This document shows positions 32,856-36,673 of a DNA stretch of 64,000 nucleotides, piece by piece. Within the stretch, counting starts at the first letter, position 1; every line of letters starts with the position of its first letter. Source of the DNA: Verrucomicrobiota bacterium (GTDB lineage Bacteria > Verrucomicrobiota > Verrucomicrobiia > Opitutales > Opitutaceae). Below the pieces are notes generated by a model. That model did no database searches. It saw nothing but the letters and a program-made list of their open reading frames with translations, and was not told where the DNA came from. The stretch is from the NCBI GenBank assembly GCA_028293545.1, contig JAQGOP010000011.1, positions 62,001-126,000 of the forward strand. The letters run 5' to 3'. Position numbers and translations under genes: made by a program.

Positions 32856-33148
32856 ACCCCATGGATCCCAAATGGTCACGGCTGGTCGCGGCTGCGCGCG
32901 GCGCAACCGACGACCGCGATACCTCCGCCCCTTACGGTTTTGCCACGCGGGTTTCGGCCTTGGCCTTGGCCGGTCGCGGGTCGAACCCGCCCCTGCTGGA
33001 ACGCTGGTCGCTCCGGGCGCTGGGCGTCGCGGGGTTGCTCGCGGCCGTGAGCGTGGCTTCGAATTTTTCGGCGATCATCAGCACCATGCGAAACGACGCG
33101 ACGGGCTTGGATGATCCTGTCGGCGATGTCGTGGAGATCGTCTCCTGA
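32852..33148 (+). CDS. Small single-pass membrane protein, candidate anti-sigma partner
   Basis: Protein of 98 residues. A charged N-terminal region of ~50 residues (MDPKWSRLVAAARGATDDRD, FATRVSALALAGR) precedes one membrane helix (LRALGVAGLLAAVSVASNFS) and a short acidic periplasmic tail. The ATG is coupled to the sigma factor stop, with AAGGAACGTAA as ribosome binding region. The layout suits a minimal anti-sigma factor or its membrane anchor, although no zinc-binding HxxxCxxC motif is present. Function inferred from position only. Confidence 0.75.
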   Translation: MNPMDPKWSRLVAAARGATDDRDTSAPYGFATRVSALALAGRGSNPPLLERWSLRALGVAGLLAAVSVASNFSAIISTMRNDATGLDDPVGDVVEIVS

Positions 33149-33149
33149 A

Positions 33150-33599
33150 ATGGATAAGACCTGGAAAGTCGTCCTCGCCTTCATTGGCATTTTTGCCGCC
33201 GGCGCCATTGCCGGCGGGCTGGTCACGCTGCGCATGTTGAACAATTTCGGGCCGCCGCGCTTTGGTTCGCCGGAGCAGTTTGGCCCGCAGCTGATGAAGC
33301 GCTTTACCTCGAAGCTCGAGCTCACCGCGGAGCAGCAGGGGAAAATCCGGCCCTTGATCACGCAGGCTGGCGAGGAATTGCACCAGATGCGCCGGACGAC
33401 GTGGACGAACTCGCAGGCGGTGGTCGAGCGCGTCGAGGGTGAGATCAACTCCTTGCTGACGCCGGAGCAAAAAGTGAAATTCGAGGAAATTCGTGCAGAG
33501 CAAAAAGAGCGCATCAAACGGTTTACCGAAGAGCGTGCCCGCCGCCTGCGCGAGAGTCACCGGCAGCCCGGCGAAGAGCCGGCGGCGCCGGCGAAATAA
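33150..33599 (+). CDS. Membrane-anchored Spy/CpxP-like periplasmic protein
   Basis: Protein of 149 residues. The N-terminal anchor (VVLAFIGIFAAGAIAGGLVT) is followed by a helical periplasmic domain with two LTxxQ-like elements, LELTAEQQGKIRPLITQAGE and SLLTPEQKVKFEEI, as in Spy/CpxP/CnrX-type envelope-stress sensors and chaperones, and ends in a Pro/Ala-rich tail. The ATG at 33150 is one base after the preceding stop. With the ECF sigma factor and the small membrane protein it forms a three-gene envelope-stress unit in which this protein could be the sensor (as CnrX is for CnrY/CnrH). That role is inference. Confidence 0.82.
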   Translation: MDKTWKVVLAFIGIFAAGAIAGGLVTLRMLNNFGPPRFGSPEQFGPQLMKRFTSKLELTAEQQGKIRPLITQAGEELHQMRRTTWTNSQAVVERVEGEINSLLTPEQKVKFEEIRAEQKERIKRFTEERARRLRESHRQPGEEPAAPAK

Positions 33600-33636
33600 G
33601 GTGTTGCGCGACTGCTGAAGCGGGGCATGGTCCGCA

Positions 33637-33737
33637 CCGGCCAGGTGCCATGCATGGGCAGGCGCGTGAACTCCGCCAGGGCCGGAAGGCAGCAACGGTA
33701 ACGACGTCCTCCTAGTGCCGTGGAGTGCCTGGCCACC
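33637..33737 (+). ncRNA. ffs: Signal recognition particle RNA, small bacterial (4.5S) type
   Basis: The conserved SRP domain IV apex is evident: CCAGGGCCGGAAGGCAGCAA then CGGT, with the GGAAG tetraloop region and the asymmetric AGCA internal loop. Outer arms GGCCAGG (33639-33645) and CCTGGCC (33728-33734) close the hairpin, giving ~100 nt. A run of T (33738-33748) follows and should terminate transcription. The gene lies directly upstream of dnaX, an arrangement also seen in Firmicutes (scr-dnaX). The exact 5' end is uncertain by a few bases. Confidence 0.93.
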
Positions 33738-33893
33738 TCTTTTTTTATTTCGGATTTCGGATTTCGAATTGCGGAAAGTTCAACCCTTCGAATTCGCGGC
33801 CTGTAGCGATGTGCGGCTCGCCGCCTCGGGGCTTCGGCACCGGTTCTGCGGTTTTTATTTGCGCTTTGAGGTTTCGGATTTGGTCTTGGGCCA
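33738..33893. other. AT-rich spacer between SRP RNA and dnaX
   Basis: The T-run after the SRP RNA hairpin acts as terminator. The remainder contains degenerate TTTCGGATTTCGGATTTCGA short tandem repeats and the dnaX leader. No gene was found here. Confidence 0.6.
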
Positions 33894-35048
33894 GTGTCTA
33901 CGGGTTACCAAGTCATCGCGCGCAAGTGGCGGTCGCAGACGTTTGACGACGTCGTGGGCCAGGACCACGTCGTGCGGACGTTGAAAAATGCCATCAACCG
34001 CGGACGCATCGCCCACGCCTATCTTTTCGTCGGCCCGCGAGGCACCGGGAAGACATCGCTGGCGCGCCTTTTCGCCAAGGCGCTTAACTGCACCGGCGGC
34101 CCCAAGGCGGATTTCGACGTCAACGACCCGGCGTGCATCGCCATCGCGGAGGGCTCCCATCTCGATGTGATCGAGATCGACGGCGCTTCGAACAACGGCG
34201 TCGACCAGGTGCGCGACCTGCGCGACACGGTGCGTTACGCGCCGGCGCAGGGAAAGTTCAAGGTCTACATCATCGACGAGGTGCACATGCTTTCGGTCCA
34301 GGCGTTCAACGCCCTGCTGAAGACGCTCGAGGAGCCGCCGGCGCACGTGAAATTTGTTTTTGCGACGACCGACCCGCAGAAGGTTTTGCCGACGATCGTG
34401 TCGCGTTGCCAGCGGTTCGACCTGCGCCCGATCCCTCCGGCGCTGATCGTCGAACGCCTGAAAAAAATCGCGCTGGCGGAGAAGATCAAAATCTCCGACG
34501 CGGCGCTCGAATGCATCGCCCGCATGGCGGACGGCGGGATGCGCGACGCGCAGTCGATCCTCGACCAAATGATTTCGTTCTGTGGGGGGGAAATCTCCGA
34601 GCCCGACGTGCTTGATGTGTATGGCCTGGTTTCCGCCGACAAAGTGGCTGCGCTGGCCGGCGCGCTGGCGGCGGGCGATCACCGGAAGATCGTTGCGATC
34701 GTTGACGAATGCGATGCCGCGGGCCGCGACCTGGTGCGCCTGCTTTCGGATTTGCAGGCGTTTGTGCGCACGGCGCTGCTCGATGCGATCGCGAAGGGCG
34801 GCAAGAGCGACGCCCTGGGTGGCGAAACGCTGACGACTGAGCAGGTCACGCGCCTGCTTGATGGCCTCCGCGAAGGTGAAGGCGCCGTGAAATTGGGCCT
34901 CGCCGAGAAAATCAATCTGGAAGTCACACTGCTGAAGGCGGTCGAGGCCAGCCGCGCTCGCGCCATCGACAGCCTGATCAAGGAGCTGACCGCACTCGCG
35001 GACGAGGCTCCGGCCGCGGTGGTCGACGGCGAAAAAAAAAAGGGCTGA
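33894..35048 (+). CDS. dnaX: DNA polymerase III gamma/tau subunit, zero-frame (gamma-like) product
   Basis: Clamp-loader ATPase, 384 residues from a GTG start ([20 protein letters not shown] is the family start). AAA+ motifs are Walker [10 protein letters not shown] (~48-56), Walker [11 protein letters not shown], and sensor 1 [20 protein letters not shown]. Domain III follows to ~370. The usual zinc-binding Cys cluster after Walker A is reduced to Cys in LNCTGG and NDPACIAI. The zero frame ends GEKKKG-stop immediately after a run of ten A (35032-35041). The -1 frame continues open for 134 codons to 35449, so this product probably corresponds to gamma and a frameshifted ~518-residue product to tau. 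Confidence 0.93.
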
Positions 35049-35079
35049 TTGACCGGCTGGAGGCGCGGCTGTCAGCCGG
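35032..35079 (+). promoter_or_regulatory. Candidate programmed -1 frameshift/slippage site in dnaX
   Basis: Ten consecutive A (35032-35041) are followed after 11 nt by a hairpin: CCGGCTG (35053-35059), 13-nt loop, CAGCCGG (35073-35079). A zero-frame TGA lies at 35046-35048. A-runs of this kind promote ribosomal -1 frameshifting (E. coli dnaX) or RNA polymerase slippage (Thermus dnaX). Confidence 0.75.
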
Positions 35080-35449
35080 CCCCGGTTCATCTGAATTTCA
35101 GCGGAAAGCCGATGACGCGGCGCCGAGTCGGTCCGATGGGCCGGAGGAAACCGCGCTGGTGGCGGTGGAAGGCGGGGTCGCTGCGCCGCTCGAAAATGGC
35201 GCGAACGTCTGGTCGGATGAGGCGGCGGAATCCGCCTTCCTCGCCGAGCAACGCGATTCCGGAACCCCCGCGCCGCCCTCCGCAGTAGCCGAGGCCAGCG
35301 AGGAGGTTGATTCCAAGAATGCCTTGCCCTCGCTCGACGAACTCGTGAAGCGAATCTCGCCGGGGACGCGCGAGCTCATGGATGAGCTTTTTCGCGCGAA
35401 ATTTATCGCCGTCCGCCGGGTGCCGAAGAAGGCCCTGAAAGAAAAGTGA
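35042..35449 (+). CDS. dnaX: dnaX -1 frame extension (tau-specific C-terminus)
   Basis: Reading on in the -1 frame after the A-run gives [20 protein letters not shown] and then an acidic, Ala/Pro-rich linker. It ends in a folded-looking tail ([40 protein letters not shown]). Open length is ~136 codons with no stop. It would extend the clamp loader with a region that, in other bacteria, binds DnaE and DnaB. A GTG at 35159 could start a separate 96-residue protein, but the uninterrupted reading frame back to the slippery site makes fusion more likely. Confidence 0.78.
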
Positions 35450-35456
35450 TGTGGCG

Positions 35457-35828
35457 TCAGCGGCTTCGGCCGATGTCGTAGTCGCTACCCAGCGCCGGAC
35501 GTCCCGAAATATCCCTCGCGTAAAGGTAGGCCTCGACTGACTGGCCGGCGAATGGGGCGAGGAGAGGAATCGGTTCGCGGCGGTAAAGTCCCTCTGAAAC
35601 TCCCTCAAGCCAGTCGAGCTTCGCCAAGCCCGCTGGATCGACGGACCAGACTTCGCCGGCGACGCCTTCCGTGTCGATGGGATCCGCGACCATGCCGGGA
35701 TATCCGTCCAATTCGTAGAGTCGGAACCCGGGGCGGGTGCGCGTGACCCCGACAAAAGCCTGGGGGGCGAGGAAATTGTGATTACTTCCGCCGCGTTTCA
35801 GGGTGCCGTAGACGAAGACCAGGCTCAT
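35457..35828 (-). CDS. Gamma-glutamylcyclotransferase-like (AIG2/GGCT fold) protein
   Basis: Protein of 123 residues. The family opening SLVFVYGTLKRGGSNHNFLA (YGTL motif) is clear, followed by RTRPGFRLYELDGYPGMVAD and the catalytic-position Glu region GVAGEVWSVDPAGLAKLDWL, where Glu of GEVW normally positions the substrate. It ends with YLYARDISGRP. Members cyclise gamma-glutamyl-amino acids or related amides; the true substrate is unknown. Its ATG overlaps the stop of the PP2C gene by one base (TGATG), so the two are translationally coupled. Confidence 0.88.
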   Translation of the reverse strand: MSLVFVYGTLKRGGSNHNFLAPQAFVGVTRTRPGFRLYELDGYPGMVADPIDTEGVAGEVWSVDPAGLAKLDWLEGVSEGLYRREPIPLLAPFAGQSVEAYLYARDISGRPALGSDYDIGRSR

Positions 35829-36673
35829 CACGCGGGGATTTCTACGACGACGGCGGTCGTGTTGTCGCGTCCCGAAGTTTGGACGGCTTCGTCGACGAGA
35901 CGCTGCGCGACGCTCGGTTTTTCTCCCGAGGGCATGGTGCGAAGGACGTCCTCGAGCTGGCGGTCCCACAATCCATCGACGAGGCCGTCGGAGCAGATCA
36001 GGAACCGGTCGCCGGGCTGGTGCCCGACGGCGCCGATGTGCGGCTCCAGGAATTGATGGCCCGCGCCGAGCGACTGCTGCAGGGCGTTGCGACGCGGGTG
36101 CGTGCGGGCCTCGCGTTCGTTCAGCTGACCGCTGCGTCGGAGGGAGCCGACGAAACTGTGGTCGTGCGTCAGCTGCGTGAACGCGCCGGTTTTCGGGAGG
36201 TAATAGATGCGGCTGTCGCCGATATGGGCGAAATACATCCACTGTGGCGTAAACCAGCCCAGGCTGAGCGTTGCGCCCATCCCGGCGCATTCCTCGTAGG
36301 AAGAACCGAGTTTCAAAAGGTCGGAGTGGATGGAGGAAAAAAGCTCCGCGAGGACATCGGCGAACCCGCTCGAGATGCCCGAAGCGGACATCCGGAAAGC
36401 CTGCGGCAGGAGCCGCATGATGCGTTCCACGGCGATGCGGCTCGCGAATTCCCCGGACTTTGCGCCGCCCATCCCATCGCTCACGGCGAAGACGAAATCG
36501 GTGCCAACGAACGAGGCCTCGCCGGTTTTCCCGAGGTAGCGGACATCGTGGCCGTCGAAGGCGAGGGCGATAAAGGCATCCTCGTTGTTCGGGCGGAAGC
36601 GGCCCCGGTCGGTGAGGGCGGACCAGCGTAACGACGCGGTGGCGGAGGGCGGCGAGGGAGCGGCGGGATCCAT
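35828..36673 (-). CDS. PP2C-family protein serine/threonine phosphatase
   Basis: Protein of 281 residues and soluble. The metal-dependent phosphatase motifs occur in order: LTDRGRFRPNNEDAF, DFVFAVSDGMGGAKSG, GMGATLSLGWFTPQ, AHIGDSRIYYL, LTHDHSFVGSL, FLICSDGLVDGL and SGRDNTTAVVVEI. All acidic metal ligands are present. It would dephosphorylate Ser/Thr-phosphorylated proteins. It lies 4 bp downstream of a 136-residue kinase-like gene on the same strand and upstream of the GGCT gene, suggesting a small kinase/phosphatase operon. Confidence 0.95.
   Translation of the reverse strand: MDPAAPSPPSATASLRWSALTDRGRFRPNNEDAFIALAFDGHDVRYLGKTGEASFVGTDFVFAVSDGMGGAKSGEFASRIAVERIMRLLPQAFRMSASGISSGFADVLAELFSSIHSDLLKLGSSYEECAGMGATLSLGWFTPQWMYFAHIGDSRIYYLPKTGAFTQLTHDHSFVGSLRRSGQLNEREARTHPRRNALQQSLGAGHQFLEPHIGAVGHQPGDRFLICSDGLVDGLWDRQLEDVLRTMPSGEKPSVAQRLVDEAVQTSGRDNTTAVVVEIPA

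What the first reader, a model, noticed from the sequence alone, without database searches (positions are those of the whole stretch)
35032..35449. dnaX carries an A10 run, a stem-loop and an open -1 frame: probable programmed frameshift producing gamma and tau
Seen: ten A at 35032-35041, a zero-frame TGA at 35046-35048, a CCGGCTG/CAGCCGG hairpin at 35053-35079, and an uninterrupted -1 frame to 35449 ending in a folded-looking Lys-rich tail. Known: E. coli dnaX uses A AAA AAG with a hairpin, and Thermus dnaX uses an A-run for polymerase slippage. Unlike E. coli, the normal frame here encodes the short product and the shifted frame the long one. A homopolymer sequencing error would look the same and cannot be excluded from one sequence.
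Basis: partly seen in the sequence, partly recalled or inferred. Interest (0 to 1): 0.75.

Follow-up and report, generated by a model that had tools for sequence, protein, structure and literature searches.

The report
dnaX read through a slippery A-run
In this bacterium the gene for a DNA-copying clamp loader carries its long tail in a different reading frame behind ten consecutive A's, and most relatives sampled across its order keep the A's while the tail's frame changes, so the two protein forms are likely made because the transcribing enzyme stutters on the A's.

Summary
dnaX (33894-35048) ends in its own frame two codons after A10 (35032-35041); the -1 frame runs on to 35449. All 12 genomes of the genus searched carry this A10, and it is the only run of ten or more A's in each. 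Of 201 readable dnaX loci from 26 families of the order, 187 keep at least nine A's there, but the tail lies in the -1 frame (121), the same frame (35) or the +1 frame (24; 7 unassigned), with at least 7-16 frame changes on the tree. The two frames without the tail are stopped within 30 nt in 175 of 199 loci, against 7.9% of control positions. The hairpin is not conserved. A -1 ribosomal shift cannot explain the +1 layouts, so transcriptional slippage (Thermus-like) is most likely. The reversed layout with 10 A's was described by Antonov et al. 2013 (PMC3711429), so this gene is a new member of a known kind; the extra result is the drift of the tail's frame through all three phases. No RNA or protein data were available.

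The parts
33894..35048 (+). dnaX zero frame (GTG start, 384 aa): AAA+ clamp-loader part; predicted short, gamma-like product
   Evidence: Pfam DNA_pol3_delta2, DNAX_ATPase_lid, DNA_pol3_gamma3 above cut-off; NCBIfam NF004046 453.7 bits, cut-off 400; TIGR02397 421.6 bits, cut-off 250
35032..35041 (+). A10 slippage run; zero frame GAA AAA AAA AAG
   Evidence: only A10 in the genome; at least nine A at this place in 187 of 201 order loci
35046..35048 (+). zero-frame stop TGA (end of the short product)
   Evidence: zero frame ends within 10 codons in 141 of 145 loci with -1 or +1 layout
35050..35052 (+). +1-frame stop TGA, closes the third frame
   Evidence: both non-tail frames stopped within 30 nt in 175 of 199 loci vs 7.9% of 49701 control positions
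35042..35449 (+). tail in the -1 frame (135 codons plus stop): C-terminal extension of the predicted long, tau-like product
   Evidence: purifying selection in the genus, median dN/dS 0.31; no Pfam or NCBIfam match
35333..35431 (+). most conserved part of the tail (alignment consensus [32 protein letters not shown]), predicted helices
   Evidence: Consensus of 51 tails; dN/dS 0.17 for the last 42 codons; AlphaFold2 blocks 91-130 of the tail at pLDDT 84-95
35053..35079 (+). inverted repeat CCGGCTG/CAGCCGG, judged incidental
   Evidence: 7 of 7 pairs in 2 of 11 genus members; no Rfam match here at E up to 1

Best explanation
This is a dnaX gene whose long tail lies in the -1 frame behind a conserved A10 run, and RNA polymerase most likely slips on that run so that the mRNAs would carry varying numbers of A and be translated normally into a short (gamma-like) and a long (tau-like) clamp-loader subunit. 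Shown here: the two frames, the conserved run of nine or more A's, purifying selection on the tail, stops in the two other frames, and the tail's presence in all three phases among relatives. Inferred: that slippage happens during transcription; that mRNAs with A10 give the short form, mRNAs with one extra A (or two fewer) give the long form, and the remaining length class also ends quickly as a short form through the +1 stop; that the two proteins play the roles of gamma and tau. Untested: the ratio of the products and any need for both.
For: Run length, not a heptamer, is what is kept: 187 of 201 readable order loci have 9 or more A (A10 142, A9 39, A11 4, A12 1, A13 1), although in the same genes of the window's family Lys is AAA in only 451 of 1665 codons and Glu GAA in 613 of 2018. 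The tail's phase relative to the upstream frame is -1 in 121, 0 in 35, +1 in 24 of those 187 (7 unassigned), with 16 changes on the tree, 12 after collapsing branches under 95% support, 7 if seven lone flips are dropped too. A profile made only from -1 tails of this family's dnaX finds phase-0 tails in ten families and +1 tails in two. Close relatives (90-94% identical over the upstream part) differ by one or two A in the run and in layout (L268/L269, L261/L264, L179/L189). Both non-tail frames are closed within 30 nt in 175 of 199 loci vs 7.9% of controls, as in Thermus dnaX (PMC5009743, PMC1088944, passages). The last codon of the run is AAC, AAT, ATA and others in many loci, and A_AAA_AAC is much less shift-prone than A_AAA_AAG in E. 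coli (PMC5009743, passage). The A10 is the only one in 12 of 12 genus genomes and, by position, in at least 22 of 61 family genomes (list cut).
Against: No RNA reads, ribosome profiling or protein data. Among -1 layouts, 85 of 121 carry A_AAA_AAG, the E. coli dnaX ribosomal shift site. Sequence downstream of the run folds slightly more strongly than control windows (mean z -0.47 vs 0.01; z under -2 in 11% vs 3.5%), and the region upstream pairs slightly better with anti-SD (mean -3.8 vs -2.9 kcal/mol) (101 loci). Two loci keep a tail at an A6 run (L210 same frame, L216 -1). Both other frames are closed within 30 nt in only 27 of 39 phase-0 layouts (127 of 136 at -1, 21 of 24 at +1), and a few exceptions are open for more than 200 nt (L174, L196, L209, L239, L292). 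Some +1 and 0 assignments (f16, f19, f20) need the iterated profile. Atkins et al. 2016 (PMC5009743, passage) speak of ribosomal frameshifting for reversed dnaX genes.
Confidence: 0.77

Rival explanations
1. Ribosomal -1 frameshifting at A_AAA_AAG, as in E. coli dnaX, with the hairpin as stimulator; here the shift would make the long product.
For: The window has A_AAA_AAG in the zero frame, as do 85 of 121 -1 layouts of the order; slight excess of downstream folding and upstream anti-SD pairing; reversed layouts are discussed as ribosomal in PMC5009743 (passage).
Against: Cannot reach the tail in the 24 +1 layouts; 28 of 121 -1 layouts end in AAC, a weak site in E. coli (PMC5009743, passage); needs only six A's and a G but nine or more are kept in 187 of 201 loci; hairpin not conserved; has no use for the stop in the third frame.
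Confidence: 0.15
2. Ribosome sliding on the poly-A lysine codons, able to come out in either other frame, gives both products without mRNA heterogeneity.
For: E. coli ribosomes slide on A-runs and end on out-of-frame stops (PMC4363877, abstract and passages); it could serve all phases.
Against: In that paper A11 gave robust truncated product but A9 and A10 little (passage); here 181 of 187 runs are A9 or A10.
Confidence: 0.05
3. Sequencing or assembly error in the homopolymer; the gene is one continuous frame.
For: Homopolymers are error-prone; a few lone flips (L175, L189, L237, L268) could be such errors.
Against: Same A10 and stop in 12 of 12 genus genomes and in family genomes held as one contig (G014, G015, G024, G059, G061); the stops next to the run are conserved.
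Confidence: 0.01
4. Only the short product is functional; the tail is a decaying remnant.
For: The normal frame ends before the tail.
Against: dN/dS 0.31 for the tail (55 genus pairs) and 0.17 for its last 42 codons (49 pairs); four loci of the small-genome family f7 that lost the run keep, by eye, a similar end in the same frame.
Confidence: 0.02

Closest known systems
Two-ORF dnaX genes of Antonov et al. 2013 (PMC3711429; abstract and passages seen)
   Same: dnaX in two frames, -1 shift needed for tau, nine of 17 genes with 10 A's, transcriptional realignment proposed from similarity to Thermus
   Different: They report 17 genes of 12 genera; the species with 10 A's are in a supplement not readable here, so I cannot say whether Opitutaceae are among them. 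The passages seen do not mention +1 layouts or drift of the phase.
Thermus thermophilus dnaX (A9, transcriptional slippage; seen through passages of PMC1088944 and PMC5009743)
   Same: A-run of nine or more, stops close by in both other frames, short and long clamp-loader forms
   Different: In Thermus the template frame encodes tau; here it encodes the short form
Escherichia coli dnaX (A_AAA_AAG, ribosomal -1 frameshift)
   Same: Same heptamer present, same gene, short and long forms
   Different: Template frame encodes tau in E. coli and the shift gives gamma; E. coli uses a stem-loop and an SD-like element (PMC3711429, PMC5009743, passages), and neither is conserved here
Shigella mxiE (PMC1088944, passage)
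   Same: Slippage needed for the longer protein
   Different: Unrelated gene, run of U's
Blochmannia dnaX (PMC3017870, abstract and passages)
   Same: A homopolymer indel in dnaX proposed to be rescued by transcriptional slippage
   Different: Lies downstream of the ribosomal site, inside the tau-only part, in an eroding endosymbiont genome

Membership tests
DnaX (gamma/tau) clamp-loader subunits | AAA+ ATPase, lid and domain III of DnaX above curated cut-offs | tested here: met
   PF13177, PF22608, PF12169, NF004046, TIGR02397 above cut-off
DnaX (gamma/tau) clamp-loader subunits | Tail homologous to tau domains IV/V (helicase and alpha binding) | tested here: inconclusive
   No Pfam, NCBIfam or PDB-sequence match; the order's tail profile finds none of 27 in-frame tails of the class outside the order; no structural match, but only 2 chains were compared
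Reversed two-ORF dnaX (Antonov 2013) | Stop right after the site in the zero frame, conserved tail in the -1 frame | tested here: met
Reversed two-ORF dnaX (Antonov 2013) | Poly-A run (10 A's in nine of their 17 genes) | tested here: met
dnaX by transcriptional slippage (Thermus kind) | Conserved homopolymer of nine or more A's, in any phase | tested here: met
   187 of 201 loci
dnaX by transcriptional slippage (Thermus kind) | Stops close by in both non-tail frames | tested here: met
   Window; 175 of 199 loci vs 7.9% of controls
dnaX by transcriptional slippage (Thermus kind) | mRNA heterogeneous in the number of A's | not testable with these tools
   No RNA data
dnaX by ribosomal -1 frameshift (E. 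coli kind) | A_AAA_AAG in frame | tested here: met
   Present in the window; 85 of 121 -1 layouts in the order
dnaX by ribosomal -1 frameshift (E. coli kind) | Conserved downstream stem-loop | tested here: not met
   2 of 11 genus members keep all 7 pairs; only a slight excess of folding over 101 loci
dnaX by ribosomal -1 frameshift (E. coli kind) | Upstream Shine-Dalgarno-like stimulator | tested here: inconclusive
   Pairing energy at or under -6 in 20% of site windows vs 13% of controls: a slight excess, not a conserved element
dnaX by ribosomal -1 frameshift (E. coli kind) | Second product always in the -1 frame | tested here: not met
   24 +1 layouts in families f8, f16, f19, f20, f22; the window itself is a -1 layout

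The most novel reading that the evidence does not exclude
In this bacterial order dnaX has become frame-free: because RNA polymerase slippage on a permanent A-run delivers mRNAs in all three frames, the genomic phase between the two halves of an essential gene is nearly neutral and has drifted repeatedly through -1, 0 and +1, while the run and the stops in whichever frames do not carry the tail are held by selection.
Probability: 0.6. Interest if true: 0.75.

Novelty: new member of a known kind. Interest (0 to 1): 0.5.

Why it matters
It would extend to much of a bacterial order, with dozens of genera, a recoding type that the paper seen here (PMC3711429) reports for 17 genes, and it turns a debate over mechanism into a clear prediction. 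If slippage is confirmed, this is a natural experiment in which a replication gene does not need a fixed reading frame, and gene callers would likely cut the tail off in most of these genomes. The small-genome lineages that lost the run but keep a tail in frame make the question of why bacteria keep gamma directly testable.

Tried and rejected
Hairpin as a signal: rejected as a conserved element, kept as a minor doubt. Rfam search of 33000-36200: only the SRP RNA matched at E up to 1; that Rfam holds a DnaX frameshift element is recalled, not looked up. Tail function by homology: no Pfam, NCBIfam or PDB-sequence match; the AlphaFold2 model is weak overall (mean pLDDT 70.9, pTM 0.29) and had no structural match among the 2 chains aligned. 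A link of the tail to tau tails outside the order could not be shown. A first count of stop distances started too late in +1 layouts and was replaced. A first collapse of weak branches did not work and was replaced; the shuffled-label control is (mean 54.5 changes, minimum 47 in 100 shuffles, against 16).

Rows dropped: one search had 305 loci with a match; 31 were set aside (23 duplicates, 8 that end before residue 330), leaving 274. Of these 204 are order loci labelled by genome handle (where a genome was also held as a named contig, the pair was counted once, in some cases under the named contig and so outside the 204). Three of the 204 end at a contig edge before the site, leaving 201; two of the 201 are from one genome (G043). 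The 199 loci are all those with a run of 8 or more, an assigned tail and an open upstream frame, named contigs included. The family search found dnaX in 188 of 200 genomes and the order search in 163 of 177, at E up to 1e-60; I read only part of these, chosen to cover genera and families. The tree uses 159 rows: about three in four A10, -1 rows of the window's family were left out, and three rows were dropped as partial or broken. The seven lone flips left out (L175, L189, L230, L235, L237, L268, L272) were my choice. Twelve readable loci have a run under 8: L210, L216, L225, L251-L255, L258, L316-L318.

Papers: abstract and passages of PMC3711429, PMC1088944, PMC3017870 and PMC4363877; passages of PMC5009743. 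All other papers were seen only in search listings. Searches for dnaX with frameshift and Verrucomicrobia, Opitut with dnaX and transcriptional slippage with Verrucomicrob listed 2, 1 and 2 papers; of these I opened only PMC3711429, where the one Verrucomicrobia mention is in a table of genomes.

Full report
What is there. The window lies in contig C8 of a 3.96 Mb genome of 63 contigs. The closest matches among GTDB contigs bear titles such as Opitutae bacterium and Opitutaceae bacterium. dnaX starts at GTG 33894, reads through the AAA+ part and domain III, and meets GAA AAA AAA AAG GGC TGA, so the normal frame ends at 35048 after 384 residues. The -1 frame is open from the run to 35449. Directly behind the run the letters TGATTGA hold a stop in the zero frame (35046-35048) and one in the +1 frame (35050-35052), so two of three frames are closed at once and the third carries the tail.

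It is not an error and not chance. The A10 is the only one in the genome on either strand. In each of the 12 genomes of the genus a run of ten or more A's occurs exactly once, in dnaX (overlapping A9 matches occur only there), with the same phase and TGA (one of them, G006, on a fragment). Of 61 family genomes scanned for A10, at least 22 have a single one and it lies, by position, at the end of the dnaX match (the list was cut, so this is a lower bound), including genomes held as one contig of about 4 to 6 Mb (G014, G015, G024, G059, G061). Other genomes of the 61 have several A10 runs elsewhere and some have none.

The tail is a real protein part. Across 11 genus members the tail in the -1 frame has median dN/dS 0.31 (55 pairs), its last 42 codons 0.17 (49 pairs), the upstream part 0.09 (55 pairs). 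The end of the tail ([12 protein letters not shown]) can be seen in loci of all three phases, though not clearly in f16 and f20. AlphaFold2 gives an N-terminal helix, an unsure linker with one helix, and a confident C-terminal helical element, with mean pLDDT 70.9 and pTM 0.29 overall. No library names it. That it binds the polymerase or helicase, as tau's tail does in E. coli (recalled), is inference.

The order-wide pattern. I read 201 dnaX loci from 26 families of the order. 187 keep nine or more A's at the same place (A10 142, A9 39, A11 4, A12 1, A13 1), two have A8 and twelve less. Yet the frame of the tail differs: -1 in 121, same frame in 35, +1 in 24, unassigned in 7. Assignment uses a profile iterated over tails. 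The uniterated profile from this family's -1 tails already finds phase-0 tails in f1, f2, f5, f8, f9, f10, f14, f15, f18 and f24, and +1 tails in f8 and f22. For f16, f19 and f20 the assignment rests on the iterated profile and on the fact that no other frame is long: in 176 of 180 assigned loci exactly one frame is open for 70 codons, and it is the assigned one. In f16, nine of nine loci have A10 followed by TAG, which closes the -1 frame at its first codon; the zero frame closes within 2 to 27 codons and the +1 frame holds a conserved tail of 114 to 142 codons.

How often it flipped. On a 159-row tree of the upstream protein part the phase changes at least 16 times, at least 12 times after collapsing branches under 95% support, and at least 7 times if seven lone flips are also dropped as possible sequencing errors. 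Shuffled labels give 54.5 on average (100 shuffles), so phase is inherited but not fixed. Some close relatives differ in run length and layout: L269 A10 (+1) and L268 A11 (-1), 94% identical; L264 A9 (0) and L261 A10 (+1), 90%; L179 A10 (-1) and L189 A12 (0), 90%. Genomes of one or two contigs show each phase: G059 (-1), G219 (0), G231 and G288 (+1).

What this says about mechanism. A ribosome shifting by -1 can read the tail only in the -1 layouts. RNA polymerase slippage yields mRNAs with different numbers of A and so serves every phase. Slippage also predicts that both frames without the tail are closed. They are, within 30 nt, in 175 of 199 loci (127 of 136 at phase -1, 27 of 39 at 0, 21 of 24 at +1), against 7.9% of 49701 control positions inside the tails; a ribosomal -1 model has no use for the stop in the third frame. 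Slippage predicts that the length of the run is kept rather than a heptamer: AAC ends the run in 28 of 121 -1 layouts and several other codons in the other layouts, whereas in E. coli A_AAA_AAC is much less shift-prone than A_AAA_AAG (PMC5009743, passage). Nine nucleotides is the length at which selection against A/T runs shows in a large proportion of bacterial genomes (PMC1088944, abstract). Ribosome sliding could also be phase-free, but in vitro A11 was needed for a robust effect and A9 or A10 gave little (PMC4363877, passage).

What speaks against it. 85 of 121 -1 layouts carry the E. coli heptamer, and folding downstream and anti-SD pairing upstream are slightly above controls (101 loci), so a ribosomal contribution in this family is possible. 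Of the 24 loci in which a non-tail frame stays open beyond 30 nt, five are open for more than 200 nt (L174, L196, L209, L239, L292). Two loci keep a tail at an A6 run (L210, L216). In the genus the window's hairpin is complete in 2 of 11 members. No transcript data exist here.

Losses. Twelve readable loci have a run under eight A's. Nine of them are from families f6, f7, f25, f27 and f28, in genomes of about 0.8 to 1.3 Mb. The four f7 loci keep, by eye, a shortened tail in the same frame. L225 (f8, 3.4 Mb) has also lost the run and carries the tail in frame. Family f26, with genomes of about 1 Mb, keeps A9 and the -1 layout in 5 of 5 loci. Outside the order, 27 of 27 readable loci of the same class that I looked at have no run of nine or more at the site and one continuous frame; a few named contigs outside the order do have A9 or A10 in a continuous frame (L077, L078, L080, L087, L088). 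In the class search all but six of the 116 dnaX matches outside the order have an open frame of 520 or more residues (of the six, G450 and G480 are continuous short genes, and the others lie near contig ends).

Comparison with what is known. Antonov et al. 2013 (PMC3711429, abstract and passages) described this layout: 17 dnaX genes of 12 genera with the frame switch needed for tau, nine with 10 A's, and proposed transcriptional realignment. Atkins et al. [quoted passage not shown] So the window's gene is a new member of a known kind. What I did not see in the passages of these papers or in the listings is the +1 layout, the repeated drift through three phases, or the double stop used as evidence on mechanism; most of the listed papers were not opened and the supplement of PMC3711429 could not be read.

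Noticed in passing
window 33639-33737 (+): Bacterial small SRP RNA (Rfam RF00169, 63 bits) lies directly upstream of dnaX.
   Followed up: no
L251, L252, L316, L317 (family f7) and L225 (f8): dnaX genes that lost the A-run and, by eye, carry a tail in one continuous frame; the f7 genomes are under 1 Mb, which suggests that gamma may be dispensable there.
   Followed up: partly
L216 (family f21): A -1 layout retained with only A6 followed by C (CTA AAA AAC GCC TGA); a candidate for true ribosomal -1 frameshifting or a decaying site.
   Followed up: no
L077, L078, L080, L087 (Verrucomicrobiales or Akkermansiaceae titles), L088 (Kiritimatiellales): A9 or A10 runs inside a continuous dnaX frame with a -1 stop 2-3 codons later, a Thermus-like layout outside the order.
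   Followed up: no
G043: L176 and L196: This genome, 7% contaminated by estimate, holds two dnaX loci, both with A10.
   Followed up: no
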